From Atopobium massiliense (GTDB lineage Bacteria; Actinomycetota; Coriobacteriia; Coriobacteriales; Atopobiaceae): a stretch of 64,000 bases of DNA. The position numbers and the translations under genes are program-made. The stretch covers positions 20,051 through 84,050 of the forward strand of contig OPYK01000002.1 of the NCBI GenBank assembly GCA_900343135.1, given 5' to 3'. Below, piece after piece: positions 48,804 to 58,176 of the stretch. Within the stretch, counting starts at the first letter, position 1, and every line of letters begins with the position of its first letter. Below the pieces are notes generated by a model. That model was not told where the DNA came from. It worked only from the letters and a program-made list of their open reading frames with translations, and made no database searches.

Positions 48804-48939
48804 AGTATCCTTTCGTGTGCGGTGTTGACAGCGCGTGCCATTGCGTTCTTTACATGAACCCTGCCGTGAGCACAAATCGCTCACTCGTACACGATACAAT
48901 AGCATCGCAAAAAACTTTGTACCAGCGGTAAGGAACCAC

Positions 48940-49998
48940 GTGAAGAACACAGCTATACCCTGGAACACCTGCGTTTCCAGTCGACATAATAATCTTAATA
49001 TTATCCGTTTTATTGCAGCGCTTGCCGTTATTTTTTCACACTCGTTTAGCGTTACCGAGGGCGCGCAGTCGGCGGGCACCCTGCTCGACATCGTAACGGA
49101 CGGGCGCCTAAGCCCAGGTGGCGTTGCCGTTGCCGTGTTTTTTGTCTACAGCGGCATTTTAATTGCAAAAAGTGTAACAACGCATACACAGCTTTCAAGC
49201 TTTTTCAAAAAGCGCGTGCTGCGTATTTTTCCCGAGCTCATCGTGTGCGTACTGGGCTCAATTGTCCTTGTTGGCGCATGCACCACTACGCTTAGCGCCT
49301 GGTCGTACTTCACAAACCCCGCCACGTGGCGCTATATGCTTAACATTTGCATGATTCCAACTCACGCGCTACCAGGCACATTTGAGCAAAACCCCTACCC
49401 TTCTGTTGTAAATGCGTCGCTGTGGACCATTCCGGCGCAGTTCATGTGCTACGTTGCGTGTTTTGTGCTCTTTAAGCTCACGCGATTTAACAAGCGCGCA
49501 TGCGGCGCGCTATGCGTGCTGGCAGTAGCTGTAGCCTGCGCATATCTGGCGTTTGCGCACTACACTATGCTGAGTTTTGTGCGCGCGTTGTTTGAATTTT
49601 TTATCGGCGTTATGTTTTATGTTTTTCGAGATTATATTACGCTTAAACCTCAGCTGGCACTTGCTACCTGCGTGGCGTTTGTGCTGCTTGTAGCATGTGG
49701 CCTGGACGTTATTGCGATGCTTGTGTGTTTTCCATACATGATTGTGTGGCTTGGCTGGGGTGCACCGTTTGTGTTTGACCGTTTTTGCGCGCGGCAAGAC
49801 TACTCGTATGGCATCTTTTTGTGGGGCTTTCCCATGCAACAACTTATCGCGCATCTATGGCCGGGTGTTACCTGGTGGCAAAACATGCTGCTTGGCTGGA
49901 TTTGCGCAGGTATATGTGCGTATATTGGCGTTGTGATTATCGCGCTGGTAAAAAAGCTTGGCGCGGCGAGCCAAAGCAGGTGCAAAGCAAGCAAATGA
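48940..49998 (+). CDS. Acyltransferase family 3 (OafA/YrhL-like) membrane protein
   Basis: A 352-aa integral membrane acyltransferase that probably O-acetylates a surface glycan. It opens with the family's LNIIRFIAALAVIFSHSF (catalytic His region) and has about ten membrane segments; FKKRVLRIFPEL and DYSYGIFLWGFPMQQ are conserved family stretches. No C-terminal SGNH domain. The GTG at 48940 has AAGGA 5 nt upstream; an upstream ATG at 48835 adds non-hydrophobic residues and overlaps the rsmD promoter side. Its 3' end carries copy 1 of the tandem-hairpin module. Confidence 0.82.
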   Translation: MKNTAIPWNTCVSSRHNNLNIIRFIAALAVIFSHSFSVTEGAQSAGTLLDIVTDGRLSPGGVAVAVFFVYSGILIAKSVTTHTQLSSFFKKRVLRIFPELIVCVLGSIVLVGACTTTLSAWSYFTNPATWRYMLNICMIPTHALPGTFEQNPYPSVVNASLWTIPAQFMCYVACFVLFKLTRFNKRACGALCVLAVAVACAYLAFAHYTMLSFVRALFEFFIGVMFYVFRDYITLKPQLALATCVAFVLLVACGLDVIAMLVCFPYMIVWLGWGAPFVFDRFCARQDYSYGIFLWGFPMQQLIAHLWPGVTWWQNMLLGWICAGICAYIGVVIIALVKKLGAASQSRCKASK

Positions 49999-50011
49999 CA
50001 CTCGCAGCTCT

Positions 50012-50182
50012 AACGCGGATAAGCGCTTTGTTGTAAGCGAAGTGCGCTAAAGCGAAACTTCGCCACAACAAAGCTCTCCGCTATCCGCGTTGATGCATCT
50101 AGCTTGACCTTCTCGCCGCGGATACAGGGAGACTGAAGAGCAATTAGTGCACTGCCTGGCAGCTGCCAGGCAGTGCGTTTTT
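50012..50182 (+). other. Tandem-hairpin 3' module, copy 1 (after the acyltransferase gene)
   Basis: Starting 13 nt after the stop: outer stem AACGCGGATA/TATCCGCGTT (50012-50021, 50082-50091), middle stem CTTTGTTGT/ACAACAAAG (50026-50034, 50065-50073), tip GCGAAGT/ACTTCGC (50037-50043, 50057-50063) with CGC-TAAA-GCG on top. After 39 nt, the box GACTGAAGAGCAATTAGTGC (50131-50150) leads into a perfect 28-bp palindrome (50149-50176) and a GTTTTTA tail. The last hairpin and T run look like a terminator; the upstream part is unexplained. Confidence 0.75.
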
Positions 50183-50212
50183 ATGGATTTTTGAAACCAG
50201 CCTTGCCGTTTA

Positions 50213-50397
50213 CTAAAACCCATTCAACGCGCCGTTTTGCGAGCTATGCAAAACGGCGCACTCATTGCTTTTCTGTCTTCCTGGCTATGCGGCAACGAAA
50301 TAGCACGCATGTTTTGTAAACGCGCAAGAGCAGGAGCTCTTTGCCTTGGAAGCTCCGCTTTAGCGCACTTCCGAAGGCAAAGAGCGTATCTTGCGCG
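50213..50397 (-). other. Tandem-hairpin 3' module, copy 2 (after the 1235-aa surface protein gene)
   Basis: Read on -, 21 nt after the stop: outer stem CGCGCAAGA/TCTTGCGCG (50321-50329, 50389-50397), middle stem GCTCTTTGCCTT/AAGGCAAAGAGC (50336-50347, 50374-50385), tip GGAAG/CTTCC with CGC-TAAA-GCG. After 43 nt the box GACAGAAAAGCAATGAGTGC (50258-50277) leads into a 12-bp stem (GCGCCGTTTTGC, 50229-50259). The T tail (GGGTTTTAG) is further away than in the other copies. Confidence 0.75.
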
Positions 50398-50418
50398 TGT
50401 TACACGTACATAAACTAA

Positions 50419-53400
50419 TTACTTAGCGTTGTACGTAAGCGGCAACGTGCACCATTTAACTTCTTCCTTGCGCCAGCCAGCTTCTACCATTTGTTCTATC
50501 TCTTTAGCGTCGGCTGTGTAGTGATGGTAGAACTTCTTCTCGTAGGGGTTATACATGCTATAAAGTTTGTTGAGTGTTACCTCTTTGTTTTGAGCACTAA
50601 ACCACTTAACACCTTCGTTTTTCCATCCTGCCTTAACGCATTGAGCAACTTCATCTTCTTTCATAGTGTAGTGGTGCTCACCTGTGGTTGGATTGTACAA
50701 GCGGTAAACTCCGCCCTTTTCGCCATGCTTGTATATGTAGCCTACGCCACCCTCGCTCTTCCAGCCAAGACGCACGAGGTTATCGTTTTCTACCGTTTCT
50801 GCGGTAAAGAAGTGCTCATGTGTGTAGGGGTTATACAGGCGGTACAGCACTGTTACCTCGGGATCCGTTGGCCTTATAAAAATCGCATACACAACAAGCG
50901 GCTTAGACCCATCGCCCTTAATAATCGTACTACTAGTAAACGTTTCGCCGCTACCATCTGGTTTGGTGTTCCACTCTTTAAAGATGTATCCCTCTTTAAC
51001 GGGGTCTTTTGGCATAGTAACCCCTGTTAAAACGGCGTCTTTTGTTACGACTGTTTCATTTGCAAGCTCGCCAATCGTTCCATCAAGTGGACCTTTAATA
51101 GTTGCAACTTCCTTACCTTCACTCATAAACTGAACATCACGAGCAGGTTTAATCGTATACTGCTGGAACAATTGCATAAGCTTTGCATTTGGGTCGTCAT
51201 TGCCTTTTGCTGAAAGCTCTTCGCTTGTTAAAAGCTTATGATCTGCTAGTGCAAGATAGTTAGAAGGCTGTTCATTCTTGTTAGGTAAGTCCCCAGCACC
51301 ACCTGCAACAATAGAAGGAAGGTAGTGCTTTACAATCTCAAACGGATCTGACGATGGTTTAGCGTCTTTGCCATTAATGCGAGAATCAAGAACTGACGGC
51401 ATGTGCGAAGTTTCAGACGCACCTTTATAAGTTACTTTGAGAACGTGATAATTATCATTTTCTGCTGTAATACCGTTCATAGAGTTAAGCAGAACATCAT
51501 TGTTACTTAGAAAAAGGTTTTCTTTAAGGTTCTGTGGCAGACAATCGTCACCATTATAATTTGGGGCAGTTGTATTCAGGTTGTAATTGATATTATCATC
51601 GTTAGTGTTTTCGATATTTAAAATAAACACAGCTTCTTTTGAGTTAACAAAAGGAGAATCAAACACATATGGCCTAAACCACTTTATGTTAGTCAATTTG
51701 AGTGGAGCATAACTAGAATCTCTATATCCAAAAAGAAGACTTGCACCTTCACCAACCTCCATGTCATTGCCGTTATAAAATGTATTTGGCCAATCTTCTA
51801 TAGGAGATATATCAGAGAGCTTCTTGCAGTGGCTGAACATTCCTTCTATCGAGCGTGTAAGGGTTGGAGTGTCTTTAAAAAATTTCGGGTGACCACAAAA
51901 CTTCCAATCTTTTATACCTCTAATATCTGTTAGATTCTCACACCCAGAAAACATGAATATCATTTCTAAATACCCATTCGTTTTCCATGTTGTAAGTCCA
52001 TTTAGGTTCGTTAAGCTCTTGCAACCACAAAACATACCGTTCATTTTGGTTACCTTTTGAACATTCCAATTAGCTATAGCATCAACGTTCGTCAAATGCT
52101 CGCAACCAGGAATATCGTTAAAGCATCCAAACATATCCCACATTGTCGTAACATTCTCGGTATTCCATTTATTTAATCCCGCCAAATTTTCAAGATTCTT
52201 ACAGCCAACAAACATGCACGACATATCGGTAACTTTGCCGGTATCCCATGAATCAAGCCCGCTAAGATTCTTCAATCCTTCACAGCCAGGAACTCTTGAA
52301 GTAGTGCCAGGAGTAGCATAAGAATCGTTATTAGAATATCCGGCAAACATGCCTTTCATAGTGGTAACGCTTTTCGTGTTCCAATCTTTAAGGGCTACTA
52401 AGCTTGTAAGTTTGTCACATCCAAAAAACAGGTAGGACATATCAGTAACCTTGCTAGTATTCCATTTCGCCAAGCCAGAAATATTCTCAAGAGTTTGAGA
52501 TCCAGATGTTTCTGTAGAAATAAGCGGATATTCAGGAGGAAATTCAGAATCGCCAGAACAATACCAGCTAAACATGCCGCGCATGGTGGTTAGGCTTTCA
52601 GTTTTCCATTTCTCTAACCCATCCAATGTTTTGAGATTTTTGCAGCCTCTAAACATGAAAGCCATATCGGTAACCTTACGGACATCCCAATTAGCCAAAG
52701 GCTTAAGATTGGTTAGGCTTTCACAGCTGAAGATAAAAGAAACCTTTTTGTTATTAATATTTTTATGTGAATACCCGGCAAACATGCCGCGCATCGTTGT
52801 AACGCTGCTCGTATTCCAGCTCGCCAAGCCAGAAATATCTGACAAGCTTTTGCAGCCGCTAAAGATGTAGTTCATTTTGGTAACCTTGCTGGTATTCCAC
52901 TTAGAAAGAGCGGCCACATTTTGGATTGATTCACAACCATCGACTGTAACACTATTATCAGGAGACACCTGTGCTGCAAACATTCCTTCCATTGTAGTAA
53001 CGTTTTCCGTGTTCCACTTCTCCAAGCCTTTTAAGCTTTTCAAACCTGTGCAGCCACTAAACATGTAGGACATATCGGCAACGTTGGCAGTATTCCACCT
53101 CTGTAAAGCATTAACATCTTCTAAGGCTTCACAACCGTTGAATTTGTTGCCACGAAGAAAATATATTACTTGACCACCAAACATCCCCTGCATAGTGGTA
53201 ACGTTTGCCGTGTTCCAATTCGCCAGCCCCGATATGTCAATTAAGCTTGTACAGCCGCTAAACATGTGCGACATGTCAGTTACCTTGCTAACGTTCCAAT
53301 TCTCCAAACCCTTCAAGCTTGTAAGATTCTTGCAGTCACCAAACATGTGCGACATATTTGTAACGTTGGCAGTATTCCATTTAGCTAGAGGTTCAACGCT

Positions 53401-54126
53401 TTTTAGATTTTCGCAGCCATTAAAAACATCATCTGTCTTTGGCTTTAACCAACCTCCAAACATCCCCTGCATAGTGGTAACGTTTGCCGTGTTCCAATTC
53501 GCCAGCCCCGATATGTCAATTAAGCTTGTACAGCCGCTAAACATGTGCGACATGTCAGTTACCTTGCTAACGTTCCAATTCTCCAAACCCTTCAAGCTTG
53601 TAAGATTCTTGCAGTCACGGAACAGATTCTTCATGTTAGTAACATGGCTTACATCAAAATTGCCATCATTGCTGATCGCTTTAAATTTACAAGCAGAGAA
53701 CAGTGAAAAATCTTTAAGAATGTATGTTGAGTTATCAAATAAATATAAACTGCCATAGCCATACACGGTGCCCTCAAATTTTAGAGTGGCACCAGAGTCG
53801 TTATTTCTCGCAATAACATCGTGTATCGCTTCAAAATCATCTTGCTTAAGGTTAGCGCTAATAACACCCTCACTCGCCCCATCCTTAGGCCGAATAACAA
53901 CCTCATGCTTGTCAAGATTAGGAACAGCTTCGCAGCCCTTCATATTTTTTACGCTGTCATCGGTTAAGATGGTTTGCGTGGTCGATGGTTCAGAAGAGGA
54001 AGAAGCAAACGAATACGTAGGACGCACGATGGCGGTAAAGCCCAGCGATAAGGCACATAATCCAACACCAACAGCTAAACGAGCGGCAATAACACGAGAA
54101 ACCACTGCGGATATACGATTCTCCAT
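50419..54126 (-). CDS. Giant BspA-like (DUF285) surface protein with DUF5648 repeats
   Basis: A 1235-aa exported protein. Signal peptide at about 1-41 (RLAVGVGLCALSLGF, cleavage near SFA). Residues about 155-765 are DUF285/BspA-type repeats of about 23-46 residues (consensus WNTxxVTxMxxMFxGCxxL). Then a Lys/Asp-rich region, an InlB B-repeat-like unit (about 1025-1085, FKEWNTKPDGSGETF), and three C-terminal DUF5648 units (YRLYNPYTHEHFFT, YRLYNPTTGEHHYT, YSMYNPYEKKFYHHYT). There is no LPXTG motif or membrane anchor; the C-terminal units may hold it on the wall. BspA relatives bind fibronectin and host cells; adhesion here is inference. It contains a perfect 163-bp repeat. AAGGAAG precedes the ATG. 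Confidence 0.88.
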   Translation of the reverse strand: MENRISAVVSRVIAARLAVGVGLCALSLGFTAIVRPTYSFASSSSEPSTTQTILTDDSVKNMKGCEAVPNLDKHEVVIRPKDGASEGVISANLKQDDFEAIHDVIARNNDSGATLKFEGTVYGYGSLYLFDNSTYILKDFSLFSACKFKAISNDGNFDVSHVTNMKNLFRDCKNLTSLKGLENWNVSKVTDMSHMFSGCTSLIDISGLANWNTANVTTMQGMFGGWLKPKTDDVFNGCENLKSVEPLAKWNTANVTNMSHMFGDCKNLTSLKGLENWNVSKVTDMSHMFSGCTSLIDISGLANWNTANVTTMQGMFGGQVIYFLRGNKFNGCEALEDVNALQRWNTANVADMSYMFSGCTGLKSLKGLEKWNTENVTTMEGMFAAQVSPDNSVTVDGCESIQNVAALSKWNTSKVTKMNYIFSGCKSLSDISGLASWNTSSVTTMRGMFAGYSHKNINNKKVSFIFSCESLTNLKPLANWDVRKVTDMAFMFRGCKNLKTLDGLEKWKTESLTTMRGMFSWYCSGDSEFPPEYPLISTETSGSQTLENISGLAKWNTSKVTDMSYLFFGCDKLTSLVALKDWNTKSVTTMKGMFAGYSNNDSYATPGTTSRVPGCEGLKNLSGLDSWDTGKVTDMSCMFVGCKNLENLAGLNKWNTENVTTMWDMFGCFNDIPGCEHLTNVDAIANWNVQKVTKMNGMFCGCKSLTNLNGLTTWKTNGYLEMIFMFSGCENLTDIRGIKDWKFCGHPKFFKDTPTLTRSIEGMFSHCKKLSDISPIEDWPNTFYNGNDMEVGEGASLLFGYRDSSYAPLKLTNIKWFRPYVFDSPFVNSKEAVFILNIENTNDDNINYNLNTTAPNYNGDDCLPQNLKENLFLSNNDVLLNSMNGITAENDNYHVLKVTYKGASETSHMPSVLDSRINGKDAKPSSDPFEIVKHYLPSIVAGGAGDLPNKNEQPSNYLALADHKLLTSEELSAKGNDDPNAKLMQLFQQYTIKPARDVQFMSEGKEVATIKGPLDGTIGELANETVVTKDAVLTGVTMPKDPVKEGYIFKEWNTKPDGSGETFTSSTIIKGDGSKPLVVYAIFIRPTDPEVTVLYRLYNPYTHEHFFTAETVENDNLVRLGWKSEGGVGYIYKHGEKGGVYRLYNPTTGEHHYTMKEDEVAQCVKAGWKNEGVKWFSAQNKEVTLNKLYSMYNPYEKKFYHHYTADAKEIEQMVEAGWRKEEVKWCTLPLTYNAK
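53177..53339. repeat. 163-bp perfect direct repeat, copy A
   Basis: Identical to 53456-53618 at every base I compared; period 279 bp (93 codons), in frame within the DUF285 region. Confidence 0.9.
53456..53618. repeat. 163-bp perfect direct repeat, copy B
   Basis: Partner of 53177-53339. Recombination between them would remove or add exactly 93 codons without a frameshift. Confidence 0.9.
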
Positions 54127-54159
54127 ACAACTTCCTTTCAGATGTAATCATGCACAAAA

Positions 54160-54188
54160 AGTATAGAACCCTGAAAAAAAAAGCAACA
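54160..54188 (-). promoter_or_regulatory. Promoter of surface protein gene 1, with T9 tract in the spacer
   Basis: -10 TATACT (54160-54165), 17-bp spacer holding nine consecutive T, -35 TGTTGC (54183-54188; poor). The same arrangement occurs before surface gene 2 at 58177-58205, with eight T and one extra non-T base, so both spacers are 17 bp. Confidence 0.55.
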
Positions 54189-54370
54189 AGTTTCAGAAAG
54201 GAAACACATTGCTTTGTGGAAGTTTTTGGTAAACAAAGTACACTGCCTCTACCCCATCTAGCAGTTGGACACATACCTGCAAAACGCACGGCGCGGCGCT
54301 TACAAAAAAAGCTGAACGATATTAGAAAAAGTTTTGTAAACGCGCGACCCACCAGTCGCATGCTTGCCAC

Positions 54371-54542
54371 TAAAACGCGCTGCCTTGCGGAGTTGCAAGG
54401 CAGCGCACTCATTGCTTTTCAGTCCTCTTGTATTGGTGATGCAGAAAGTAAATGAGACACACAAACGGCCAGCTGGGAGCTTTGTTGTGGCGAAGTTTCG
54501 CGCAAGCGCACTTCGCAGACAACAAAGCGTCTGGCCGTTTGT
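54371..54542 (-). other. Tandem-hairpin 3' module, copy 3 (after the 1193-aa surface protein gene)
   Basis: Read on -, 18 nt after the stop: outer stem ACAAACGGCCAG/CTGGCCGTTTGT (54461-54472, 54531-54542), middle stem CTTTGTTGT/ACAACAAAG (54480-54488, 54519-54527), tip GCGAAGT/ACTTCGC (54490-54496, 54510-54516). After 36 nt the box GACTGAAAAGCAATGAGTGC (54405-54424) leads into a 12-bp stem (GCGCTGCCTTGC, 54377-54406) and GTTTTAG. Middle stem and tip are nearly identical to copy 1; the outer stem is unrelated. Confidence 0.75.
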
Positions 54543-54560
54543 ATTTGCAAGTAATGATAC

Positions 54561-57500
54561 TTACTTAGCAGCGTACCATTTTATTTCCTCTTTACGCCAG
54601 CCATCCTTCACCATCTTGGCAATCTCGTTTGCGTCAGAGGTGTAGTGGTGGTAGAACTTCTTCTCATACGGGTTATACATACTTACCATGCCATTTACCT
54701 GCTTGTCCTCATCTAGCACGCTAAAGAACTTCACACCTTCATTTCTCCAGCCCGCCTTCACACATTTTGCAACCTCGTCTTCTTTCATAGTGTAGTGATG
54801 CTCGCCCGTGTTTGGATTGTACAAGCGGTATACACCGCCTTTCTCGCCATGCATGTACACTTTACCAACGGCACCTTCAAAGCGCCAACCAAGCGTTACA
54901 AGGTTGTCTTTCTCGATTACATCGGTGGTAAACAAATGCTCGTGGCTATACGGGTTATACAGGCGGTACATTGCCGTTAACTCATTTTCTGCCTGATAAC
55001 CAAACGCTCCTGCAGAACCGCTGCCGCCTTCCTCAGACGGATTAGGGTTAGGTACTGGAGGCTGAGGCTGCGGCTGCGGCTGCGGTGTAGGCGGTGTTAC
55101 GGTGCTCTTCGTATAAACAGCGTATACAGTCATATCCTCGTTAACAACAGTATCTGCTGTAAAAGCCTTGCCCTGACCGTCTTGTTGCGTATTCCACTCT
55201 TTAAAAGTAAAACCATCTTCAGCCGGTGCAGCAGGCATGGAAGCAGCTGCTACTTTCTTACCAGTTTCTACTTTAACCGTAGATAACAGACTTCCATCTT
55301 TCTTATTAAATGTAACTGTTTTCTGATTCTGTACTGGCGGCTTCGTCGTGACGACCGTCGGGTCACTTAAAGTACCATCATTCGGGTTAACTTTGTAAGT
55401 TTTAGTTGTGGTTGAACCGTCGTTATTTTGAATAACTTCTTTGTTGCCGACTTGTACAACCTCATTAACAGGTTTGGTACACGAACCCTTTTTCGCTTCA
55501 ACTTCCGACGTTAAGCCGGTCTTAGCGTCTACCTTGTAAGTCAACGTGACTTCTTCTTTACCGTTTTTACCAGCGGTTTTAGTCTGCTGCGCTTTGTAGG
55601 TAAGATCTGGATTTCCCTTGTAAGTTTTCTTGCAAGGAATGTCGCTTGTCTTTTTCTCAACGTTGCCGACTTTGATGACTTTGTCTTTGGCTTTAACAGT
55701 CTCTACAGTCGGCGTGCCTTCAACCTCAGCAGTAAGTCCGGTGTCCGGATTAACCTTGTAGATAGTTGTCGTGGTTTTCGTGCCCTTGGTGCCCTCTGTC
55801 GTCTGTTCCTTCTTGTAATCAAGCGAGCTGTCGGCCTCGTAAACTGTAGCGGGATTCAGCTCCTCGGTTTCAACTTTTTTATTACCGACTTTAGTTACAC
55901 CGTTTACGGCTGCCTTAATTTCGACTTTCGGTTCACCTTCGACCCATTGGCCGTTTACCACTTTACCTGTCGGAGTTGTAATCTTCTCCCCATCTTTAGG
56001 GTCATTTACTTTCTGCGTTTGGCCGTAGGGCAGTGATTCATCGGCTACATAAGTCATTTTAGCCTTTAAAACTTCAGAGACCGCTGCTCCACTTGCAATA
56101 TCGGTCCACGGACGCGAGGTTACTACTGTCGGATCACTTAAAGTACCGTCGTCCGGATTAACTTTGTAAGTCTTAGTTGTGGTTGAGCCGTCGTTATTTT
56201 GAGTAACTTCTTTGTTGCCGACTTGTACAACCTCATTAACAGGTTTGGTGCACGAACCCTTTTTCGCTTCAACATCCGTTGTTAAGCCGATTTTAGCGTC
56301 TACCTTGTAAGTCAAAGTAACTTCTTCTTTGCCGTTTTGTCCGGCAGTTTTTGTTTCCTGTTTTTGGTAGGTAAGATCCGGATTTCCTTCATACGTTTTC
56401 TTGAAAGGAATGTCGCTGGTCTTTTTCTCTACGTTACCGACTTTGATGACTTTGTCTTTGGCAGCTTGGGTCTCAACTTTCGGCGTGCCGTCAACCTCAT
56501 CAGTAAGTCCGGTGTCCGGATTGACTTTATAGGTAGTTGTCGTAGTTTTAGTGCCCTTGGTACCAGCAGTTTCTGTAGTGGTATTATAAGCAAGCGAGCT
56601 GTCGGCCTCATAGACTGTAGCAGGATTCAGATCCTCGTTTTCAACTTTTTTGTTGCCGACACGGGCTTTTCCGTTTACAACCTTTGTTATCTCTTTTTCT
56701 GATGTGGCATCAGGATCCCAAGCGCCGTTCTTCATTGCACCAGTTATCACTTGCTTTTTACCGTCTACTGCTTTTGTATCGGTAACAACTTCTTGATATT
56801 TAAGCGACGAATCAGCGGTGTACGTCGTCTTAGCTTTTATTACTTCTTCTTTTACAATCCCAAGGTAGTAATCCTGAAACAGTTCAATCGGTGACTTAGC
56901 GTCCTTAAGATCGTGCACGGGCACGGGAATTACATTCTGCGGTAAGTTAAGGTCGGGATTTTTGGTGCGCAGTTCTTTTACAGCGTTTTTAATTGCTTCG
57001 TCAATCTGCGGCCTAACAACCTTCATAGGGTCGCTGCATGCCGGTTTTGAAGCGTCGGGTTTGCCATTGGCGTCGATGCGCGAATCGTAAACAGCAGGAA
57101 GTTCAAGCTCTGCCGACTTTTCGGTACCGTTCACTTTGTAAATTACTTTGACTTTTTTGTAGAACTTGTACTTCTCAGTCTTATTCTTTTCAAGAATTGT
57201 TGAGTTATCCGTAATAAGCAAGTGCCAGCTCGGGCCAGTGTATGCAGAACCATTCCAGTGCGTAAGCATATTACTTGAATTATCTAACAGCTTCTGAATT
57301 GGATTATTCGACCCATTCGGATCCGCAACCGTCCAACCATTCGCCACAAGCACACCGCGGAAAGAATTGAACATGTTCGTAACATCAGCAGAATTCTTAA
57401 ACTTTTTATTGCTAAAGTCGAGCACAAAGTTATCGTTTTCGTTTCCTACGCCAGAGAACATTAATTTAAACGTACCTACATTAGACACGTTCCACTTGGA

Positions 57501-58142
57501 AAGGTCAAGCTTGCCTTCAAGCTGACTTGCCAAGTTAAACATCTTTTCCATGCTTTCAATCTTCGACGTATCCCAGTTCTCTATGCCCTTAATATAGTGC
57601 AAGCGATTAGCAGATTTCTTATAATTTTGCATAAAGAACGTTGCTAAATTCTTTGCAAATTTAATGCTGAGATTAGGTGTGATGTTAATAGTCTCGGCAT
57701 GCATTTGATAGAATAACGTATCATTTGCACTCGGCTCCGTAGAACCGTAAATATAAACTCGCTTATCAAAACGTACTGGAAAATGGTCACCAAGATCATT
57801 AAAAATAAGGTTTTTCCTTATTTCAGTAAAATCGCCTTTTTTATTGTCAAGCGAATAAGAAATAACTCCTTCGCTAGCACCATCCTTTGGTCGAATAACA
57901 ACTTCTTTTTTATCTACATCAATAAATGATTCGCAGCCTGGAAGAGCCTTGGCTTCATCCTCAGATAGCGTATCGCGCACGGGTGGTAACTCCGATGAAG
58001 AAGAGGCAACAGAATTCGAAGCAAACGAGTACGTTGGTAGCGCGGCGGCGGCAAAGCCCATCGTGGTAGCACATAATCCAACACCAACAGCTAAACGCGC
58101 AGCAATAACGCACGGGACAACTGCGCAGGTACGATTTTTCAT
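54561..58142 (-). CDS. Giant surface protein with BspA-like, G5-like and DUF5648 repeats
   Basis: A 1193-aa exported protein paralogous to the upstream 1235-aa one at both ends. Signal peptide (RLAVGVGLCATTMGFAAAA) then a few DUF285-type units (about 185-265, WDTSKIESMEKMF, WNVSNVGTFKLMF). Residues about 430-920 are two large repeats of 257 residues, each containing G5-like units (KVNPDTGL...VIKVG). Then an InlB-type unit (about 940-1010), a Pro/Gln spacer (about 1018-1045) and three DUF5648 units. No LPXTG. The ATG at 58142 has GGAAGGA 6 nt upstream. G5 domains bind N-acetylglucosamine-containing polymers in other proteins; wall or matrix binding is inference. Confidence 0.85.
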   Translation of the reverse strand: MKNRTCAVVPCVIAARLAVGVGLCATTMGFAAAALPTYSFASNSVASSSSELPPVRDTLSEDEAKALPGCESFIDVDKKEVVIRPKDGASEGVISYSLDNKKGDFTEIRKNLIFNDLGDHFPVRFDKRVYIYGSTEPSANDTLFYQMHAETINITPNLSIKFAKNLATFFMQNYKKSANRLHYIKGIENWDTSKIESMEKMFNLASQLEGKLDLSKWNVSNVGTFKLMFSGVGNENDNFVLDFSNKKFKNSADVTNMFNSFRGVLVANGWTVADPNGSNNPIQKLLDNSSNMLTHWNGSAYTGPSWHLLITDNSTILEKNKTEKYKFYKKVKVIYKVNGTEKSAELELPAVYDSRIDANGKPDASKPACSDPMKVVRPQIDEAIKNAVKELRTKNPDLNLPQNVIPVPVHDLKDAKSPIELFQDYYLGIVKEEVIKAKTTYTADSSLKYQEVVTDTKAVDGKKQVITGAMKNGAWDPDATSEKEITKVVNGKARVGNKKVENEDLNPATVYEADSSLAYNTTTETAGTKGTKTTTTTYKVNPDTGLTDEVDGTPKVETQAAKDKVIKVGNVEKKTSDIPFKKTYEGNPDLTYQKQETKTAGQNGKEEVTLTYKVDAKIGLTTDVEAKKGSCTKPVNEVVQVGNKEVTQNNDGSTTTKTYKVNPDDGTLSDPTVVTSRPWTDIASGAAVSEVLKAKMTYVADESLPYGQTQKVNDPKDGEKITTPTGKVVNGQWVEGEPKVEIKAAVNGVTKVGNKKVETEELNPATVYEADSSLDYKKEQTTEGTKGTKTTTTIYKVNPDTGLTAEVEGTPTVETVKAKDKVIKVGNVEKKTSDIPCKKTYKGNPDLTYKAQQTKTAGKNGKEEVTLTYKVDAKTGLTSEVEAKKGSCTKPVNEVVQVGNKEVIQNNDGSTTTKTYKVNPNDGTLSDPTVVTTKPPVQNQKTVTFNKKDGSLLSTVKVETGKKVAAASMPAAPAEDGFTFKEWNTQQDGQGKAFTADTVVNEDMTVYAVYTKSTVTPPTPQPQPQPQPPVPNPNPSEEGGSGSAGAFGYQAENELTAMYRLYNPYSHEHLFTTDVIEKDNLVTLGWRFEGAVGKVYMHGEKGGVYRLYNPNTGEHHYTMKEDEVAKCVKAGWRNEGVKFFSVLDEDKQVNGMVSMYNPYEKKFYHHYTSDANEIAKMVKDGWRKEEIKWYAAK
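55345..56840. repeat. 771-bp tandem duplication in surface gene 2
   Basis: Two diverged copies with a 771-bp (257-codon) period; for example ACTTAAAGTACC at 55365 and 56136. Edges are approximate. The copies differ by scattered substitutions but keep the frame. Confidence 0.75.
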
Positions 58143-58176
58143 ACGGCATCCTTCCACAAGGTAATACTAATTTTTA

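What the first reader, a model, noticed from the sequence alone, without database searches (positions are those of the whole stretch)
49999..54560. Repeated tandem-hairpin module after the stop codon of three genes
Seen directly: the acyltransferase gene (+) and both giant surface-protein genes (-) are followed by the same about 170-nt architecture (50012-50182, 50213-50397, 54371-54542). Stop, 13-21 nt, a large three-tier hairpin with a conserved tip, 36-43 nt, a 20-nt conserved box, then a 12-bp hairpin and a T-rich tail. Middle and lower stems differ but stay paired: CTTTGTTGT/ACAACAAAG versus CTTTGCCTT/AAGGCAAAG, and GCGCCGTTTTGC versus GCGCTGCCTTGC with both arms changed. The terminal hairpin fits a terminator; the large hairpin and box are more than a terminator needs. 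Possible roles: a structured 3' UTR, a 3'-derived small RNA, an RNA-stability or localisation element for surface-related mRNAs, or a MITE-like palindromic element. A 15-mer GTTTTGTAAACGCGC also recurs near it (50311, 54331).
Basis: partly seen in the sequence, partly recalled or inferred. Interest (0 to 1): 0.85.

Follow-up and report, generated by a model that had tools for sequence, protein, structure and literature searches.

The report
Conserved caps on bacterial gene-end hairpins
The three repeats are real. They belong to an undescribed family of small conserved RNA 'caps' that crown the hairpins at the ends of genes across an order of gut and mouth bacteria, which suggests something in the cell recognises messenger-RNA ends there.

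Summary
The window carries three copies of a 3'-UTR module: stop codon, a large three-tier hairpin with a conserved tip, a 19-nt box, then a terminator hairpin. The genome has 17 tips and 20 boxes, mostly behind DUF5648-tailed surface-protein genes. No Rfam family matches.

The tip is not specific to surface genes. A covariance model from Olsenella copies finds it in all 31 Olsenella genomes searched (2-31 per genome) and more sparsely in another family of the order. There it sits as an apical cap on the intrinsic terminators of housekeeping genes such as groEL, gpmA, leuS, pnp, guaB and rplX. It lies about 50 nt past the stop, in sense orientation (52:6), with a T-rich tail. Some species have a plain terminator at the same groEL or gpmA site. 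Caps resemble their orthologues (0.845), not other caps in the same genome (0.773), so they are inherited vertically, not transposing now. At groEL the apical base pairs drift (CGC/GCG, CTC/GAG, CAC/GTG) while the unpaired G and RA stay fixed.

Best reading: an RNA-level 3'-end motif, probably a docking site for an unknown factor (inferred). REP/RAYT membership fails. I judge it a new variant of a known kind.

The parts
48835..49998 (+). Acyltransferase gene (PF01757), host of copy A; stop codon at 49996-49998
50011..50092 (+). Copy A capped hairpin: lower stem 50011-50021/50082-50092, middle stem 50025-50034/50065-50074 (plus 2 bp at 50023-50024/50080-50081)
   Evidence: fold, (z -7.06)
50037..50063 (+). 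Copy A cap: stem 50037-50043/50057-50063, unpaired G 50044, apical stem 50045-50047/50052-50054, loop TAAA, unpaired AA 50055-50056
50131..50149 (+). Copy A box GACTGAAGAGCAATTAGTG
50149..50183 (+). Copy A terminator hairpin (12 bp) and T tail
50419..54126 (-). Surface-protein gene 1 (DUF285/BspA-like repeats, List_Bact_rpt, C-terminal DUF5648), host of copy B
50320..50398 (-). Copy B capped hairpin: lower stem 50398-50389/50329-50320, middle stem 50385-50374/50347-50336
   Evidence: z -6.99
50348..50372 (-). Copy B cap: stem 50372-50367/50353-50348, unpaired G 50366, apical stem 50365-50363/50358-50356, loop TAAA, unpaired GA 50355-50354
50259..50277 (-). Copy B box GACAGAAAAGCAATGAGTG
50226..50262 (-). 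Copy B terminator hairpin (GCGCCGTTTTGC type); ends about 50 nt from copy A's terminator, so the pair lies between convergent genes
54561..58157 (-). Surface-protein gene 2 (G5, DUF285, List_Bact_rpt, DUF5648), host of copy C
54459..54544 (-). Copy C capped hairpin: lower stem 54544-54531/54472-54459, middle stem 54528-54519/54488-54479
   Evidence: z -7.45
54490..54516 (-). Copy C cap: stem 54516-54510/54496-54490, unpaired G 54509, apical stem 54508-54506/54501-54499, loop TTGC, unpaired AA 54498-54497
54406..54424 (-). Copy C box GACTGAAAAGCAATGAGTG
54375..54409 (-). Copy C terminator hairpin (GCGCTGCCTTGC type), followed by GTTTTAGTGG

Best explanation
The module is an RNA-level 3'-end element in two parts. 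The first is a long hairpin crowned by a conserved apical cap: stem, unpaired G, 3-bp apical stem, TNC loop (a tetraloop in this genome), unpaired RA, stem. The second, seen only in this genome, is a box followed by an intrinsic terminator. In relatives the cap sits directly on the terminator hairpin, as an extension of its loop. The gene's transcript ends with this structure folded. The fixed unpaired bases on a stem that is free to change suggest that the cap is read by a trans-acting factor, which would influence 3'-end formation or protect the mRNA 3' end. Shown here: the structure, gene-end position, sense orientation, T-rich tail, vertical inheritance with individual genes, orthologous presence or absence, and compensatory change under fixed unpaired bases. 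Inferred: transcription through the element, the existence of a ligand, and the effect on the mRNA.
For: Own genome: 17 tips and 20 boxes, with the pattern-reversed control at 0 and 1. About 13 copies lie 46-49 nt behind DUF5648 genes. Olsenella: all 31 genomes have 2-31 model matches, and most have exact tip matches while backward-pattern controls are near 0. Of 85 non-redundant copies, 52 have a coding ORF stop only on the sense side and 6 only on the antisense side (p = 3e-10); 59 of 60 sense distances are 35-62 nt, median 49.5. T in the 10 nt after the stem averages 3.1, against 1.9 for the mirror flank (p = 4e-7). Host genes are groEL, gpmA, leuS, pnp, guaB, rplX and others. Plain terminators occupy the same groEL site in G096 and G110 and the same gpmA site in G109, G106, G113 and G089, with near-identical base stems in some pairs (GACTCGACGAGCCCCCGG in plain G110 versus GACTCGGCGAGCCCCCGG in capped G086). 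Caps of the same gene in other genomes are 0.845 identical (0 of 1000 permutations reach this); other genes in the same genome 0.773, no more than chance. At groEL the apical stem is CGC/GCG, CTC/GAG or CAC/GTG while G and RA stay. The outer stems show G.U over A.C at 21:11, like uncapped terminators at 31:14 and unlike chance hairpins at 181:187.
Against: No transcript data exist here, so transcription and 3' ends are inferred. In the window itself the capped hairpin has no clear T-run, and a separate terminator follows it. Caps are lost in some species, so they are not essential for termination. The 21:11 wobble excess is not significant on its own (p = 0.11). No ligand gene was identified. 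Some capped hairpins occur as inverted or tandem pairs or nested in each other, which a simple 3'-end signal does not predict.
Confidence: 0.5

Rival explanations
1. The caps are small palindromic insertion elements that enter the loops of terminator hairpins, a safe site because the terminator still folds. They persist as neutral or selfish DNA.
For: Presence or absence at orthologous terminators. Capped hairpins nested inside other caps in this genome. Inverted and tandem pairs. One genome of another family (G291) has about 30 near-identical copies.
Against: In Olsenella, caps in the same genome are no more alike than random ones, while caps of orthologous genes are. Strong sense bias and fixed distance to stop. 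No transposase linked: the Y1 family is absent from this genome and from G291, and no cap lies near 30 Y1 genes in relatives. No match in plasmid or phage records and no folded copy in viral contigs.
Confidence: 0.25
2. The cap is only a folding aid: a stable apical nucleus that makes a strong terminator, with no ligand, comparable to UUCG loops on terminators.
For: It sits on terminator stems of housekeeping genes with a T-rich tail; wobble usage as in ordinary terminators.
Against: A folding aid does not explain the invariant unpaired G and RA, the conserved TTCC/GGAA base, or conservation of the apex across two families. The base stems are already about 12 bp or longer and G+C-rich.
Confidence: 0.15
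3. A DNA-level REP/BIME-like site (for example a gyrase or nucleoid-protein site) at the 3' ends of highly expressed genes.
For: Palindromic, at gene ends, sometimes in inverted pairs; REPs are also mainly downstream of ORFs (PMC3733652).
Against: No GTAG/CGTC tag, no linked RAYT, copy number below typical REPs, strong sense bias and T tail.
Confidence: 0.07

Closest known systems
Intrinsic (Rho-independent) terminators, including lineage-specific conserved ones such as TRIT in Mycobacterium tuberculosis (RNIE, Gardner et al. 2011, cited in PMC3526491)
   Same: G+C-rich hairpin just after stop codons, sense orientation, T-rich tail; a lineage-specific conserved terminator model has a precedent
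   Different: Here the conserved part is an apical module on variable terminator stems, present or absent at orthologous terminators, with fixed unpaired bases. In this genome the capped hairpin precedes a separate terminator. TRIT was not compared by sequence.
REP / BIME elements (GTAG and CGTC superfamilies, PMC3733652)
   Same: Repeated palindromes downstream of ORFs, sometimes in inverted pairs
   Different: No terminal GTAG/CGTC tag, longer (about 75 nt), variable arms with a conserved tip, no associated RAYT, 2-31 copies
Streptococcus pneumoniae BOX elements (from general knowledge)
   Same: Modular intergenic repeat with a stem-loop and conserved boxes
   Different: Not compared by sequence; the conserved tip and terminator position are not BOX features known to me

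Membership tests
Intrinsic terminator | Stable hairpin close behind a stop codon, on the coding strand | tested here: met
   52 sense-only versus 6 antisense-only; median 49.5 nt stop-to-cap; window copies
Intrinsic terminator | T-rich tract after the hairpin | tested here: met
   Relatives' capped hairpins: 3.1 versus 1.9, p = 4e-7. Window: met by the second hairpin of copies A and C (GTTTTTATGG, GTTTTAGTGG); not clear for the capped hairpin itself
Intrinsic terminator | RNA 3' end maps to the hairpin | not testable with these tools
   No RNA-seq available
REP (GTAG/CGTC) | Unpaired GTAG or CGTC motif at one end of a 20-40 bp palindrome | tested here: not met
   No conserved position outside the stem in 81 copies; hairpin about 75 nt
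REP (GTAG/CGTC) | Associated RAYT (Y1 transposase) in or near copies | tested here: not met
   PF01797 absent from own genome and G291; no cap in 30 Y1 loci
MITE / mobile palindrome | Copies within a genome more alike than between genomes | tested here: not met
   Olsenella: 0.773 same genome versus 0.779 background. In G291 copies are near-identical
MITE / mobile palindrome | Empty sites at orthologous loci | tested here: met
   Plain terminators at groEL and gpmA in some species; direction of change not determined
Any Rfam 15 RNA family | Match at or above gathering score | tested here: not met
   only sub-threshold hits over the element, chiefly eukaryotic miRNA-type long hairpins
TRIT | Match to the TRIT model | not tested
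   Model not available

The most novel reading that the evidence does not exclude
Coriobacteriales have a trans-acting RNA-binding factor that recognises the cap (unpaired G, TNC loop, RA) on the 3' ends of a defined set of mRNAs. A second, unrelated cap type (about AYGTYCTCG...CTGCGRAATGT) serves the same purpose in a sister family: a general system of marking terminator hairpins with swappable apical tags.
Probability: 0.25. Interest if true: 0.82.

Novelty: new variant of a known kind. Interest (0 to 1): 0.6.

Why it matters
How mRNA 3' ends are set and protected is poorly known in Coriobacteriia, common members of the human gut and mouth flora. This is a conserved, countable, experimentally reachable motif: all 31 Olsenella genomes searched carry it, on identifiable genes, with natural uncapped controls at the same sites. 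If a protein reads it, it would be a 3'-end RNA-protein system in a class with no characterised one known to me. If it is an insertion element, terminator loops would be a new kind of safe harbour.

Tried and rejected
REP/RAYT: Y1 transposases exist in most Olsenella tested but not in this genome or G291, and none of 30 lies near a cap. A first wobble test on strictly interior positions gave G.U 7, A.C 7 against 13:2 in uncapped terminators and suggested a DNA-level palindrome; with one counting rule for both sets and more copies it became 21:11 against 31:14, no difference, so I dropped that reading. Cross-locus covariation (147 both-side changes, 98.8% paired versus 77% shuffled) is real pairing but mostly reflects different host terminators; I do not count the outer stem as compensatory evolution. 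Phage, plasmid and viral origin: no match, or unfolded chance matches only. An exact-pattern scan of named genomes returned only two Olsenella contigs because the tip stem and loop vary. One search failed through a regular-expression fault and was replaced. A possible DNA-level meaning of the loop (sense TNC is GNA on the other strand) was noted but not pursued. Literature searches for Coriobacteriia or Olsenella repeats found nothing relevant.

Full report
Observation. The three modules exist as described. Copy A follows the acyltransferase gene (+, stop 49996-49998), copy B the first surface-protein gene (-, stop at 50419) and copy C the second (-, stop at 54561). Each has a hairpin of three tiers, a spacer, a box GACWGAARAGCAATKAGTG, and a 12-15 bp hairpin; in A and C a T-run follows, in B GTTGAATGGG. 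RNA folds give z-scores of about -7 for the capped hairpins and -4.6 to -5.7 for the terminal ones. Tip and box are far above chance in the window.

In this genome (1.55 Mb, 16 contigs, the only held genome of its genus) the tip occurs 17 times and the box 20 times. About 13 copies stand 46-49 nt behind genes with the same DUF5648 C-terminus; the genome has 21 DUF5648 matches, and a few copies of that gene lack the cap. The remaining copies, including window copy A, mostly lie convergent to a DUF5648 copy. Several are nested: an entire capped hairpin replaces the loop of an outer one. The terminal hairpin comes in several unrelated stem types between constant flanks. The simplest reading of the surface-gene link is that gene tail and module were duplicated together (inference).

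Relatives. The exact tip is rare outside the genus, but the core AGTGCGC-N3-6-GCGRAACT occurs in nearly all of one genus (g33) with near-zero controls. A covariance model from 28 Olsenella copies finds 2-31 matches in each of 31 Olsenella genomes, 6 in the own genome, and sparser matches in other genera and in another family of the order. Its E-values are rough and its counts are lower bounds, because the number of candidates scored per genome was capped. In those other groups the stem around the apex changes (for example GCGGAGT, GGGAACT, CAGAGAT) while G-CGC-TNC-GCG-RA mostly stays. Rfam has no such family.

What it sits on. In Olsenella the capped hairpin stands behind groEL, gpmA, a gltD-type gene, an ABC transporter, leuS, pnp, guaB, rplX, pyk and others (gene names from my reading of the C-termini). 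It is almost always sense (52 to 6) and 35-62 nt past the stop, with a T-rich tail. At the groEL 3' end, 21 of 28 Olsenella genomes have a strict cap, while G096 and G110 have a plain terminator with the same type of base stem; gpmA shows the same with 16 of 28 strict caps and plain terminators in G106, G109, G113 and G089. So the variable outer stem is the gene's own terminator and the conserved part is an apical cap. This explains why outer stems differ at every locus yet pair, and it means cross-locus covariation of that stem is not evidence of compensatory evolution.

Selection or mobility. Caps resemble those of the same gene in other species (0.845; no permutation of 1000 reaches it) and not those elsewhere in the same genome (0.773, background 0.779). 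They are inherited with the gene. Within groEL orthologues the apical stem is CGC/GCG, CTC/GAG or CAC/GTG, with G and RA unchanged and loops mostly TNC. That strict classifier requires the G and RA, so the claim that they stay fixed also rests on the unfiltered sequences, where three or four degenerate or flipped copies (G085, G087, G089, G103) do depart. Paired positions drift and unpaired positions mostly stay: the pattern of a recognised RNA motif. Wobble use in the outer stem equals that of uncapped terminators. The Y1 transposase test, the tag test and the mobile-DNA searches are negative. Against a purely static picture stand the presence/absence differences, the nested copies here, inverted and tandem pairs, and one genome of another family with about 30 near-identical copies.

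A second cap. In the other family, groEL terminators of G335, G162, G199 and G259 carry a different conserved apex, about AYGTYCTCG...CTGCGRAATGT; G259 has a further hairpin nested in it, while G278 and G291 have plain terminators. Capping of terminators may be a general habit of this order with interchangeable caps. This rests on four sequences.

Verdict. That it acts in RNA is well supported by position, orientation and tail; that a factor reads it is inference. I call it a new variant of a known kind (terminator-associated conserved RNA motif), with a modest chance of a new 3'-end RNA-protein system.

Noticed in passing
L039:6502-6693, L043:6754-6945, L044:7971-8162, L045:7147-7338, L046:10933-11124; remnant in window about 54295-54345: A separate inverted-repeat element of about 190 bp with 37-bp ends (ATATTAGAAAATTACCCCACTTTGACACGCGTTT...), flanked by TTACAAAA...GTTGAACG / TTTTGTAA, lies between convergent modules or beside a module at five loci.
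   Followed up: partly
L291, L292, L294, L295 (groEL 3' ends of another family in the order): A different conserved cap (about AYGTYCTCG...CTGCGRAATGT) on groEL terminators, in G259 with another hairpin nested inside it.
   Followed up: partly
G291 loci L238-L257: About 30 near-identical capped hairpins (GGTGGCATAG...) within longer repeated intergenic flanks in a 1.7-Mb genome without a Y1 transposase.
   Followed up: partly
L066, L115, L139: In Olsenella a capped hairpin sits in an unusually long gap (about 420-760 bp) between rplX (L24) and rplE (L5) inside the ribosomal-protein operon, so it may be an internal attenuator or processing site.
   Followed up: no
L076/L126 (guaB), L094/L114/L127 (glnQ-type), L087/L102/L146 (HIT gene): Inverted pairs of capped hairpins recur at the same gene ends in several Olsenella species, many about 70-90 bp apart; leuS in G097 (L104) has three direct copies with 78-bp spacing.
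   Followed up: partly
L039:9335-9406: A long TGGC tetranucleotide run about 120-190 bp upstream of a DUF5648 surface-protein gene in this genome: a possible phase-variation switch.
   Followed up: no
L039:551-733: Tandem array of a 17-bp unit (CTATAGGTTGACGTGCG), about ten copies.
   Followed up: no
L270 (G085 groEL 3' end): The cap appears inverted on an otherwise conserved groEL terminator, as if the palindrome's centre had flipped.
   Followed up: no
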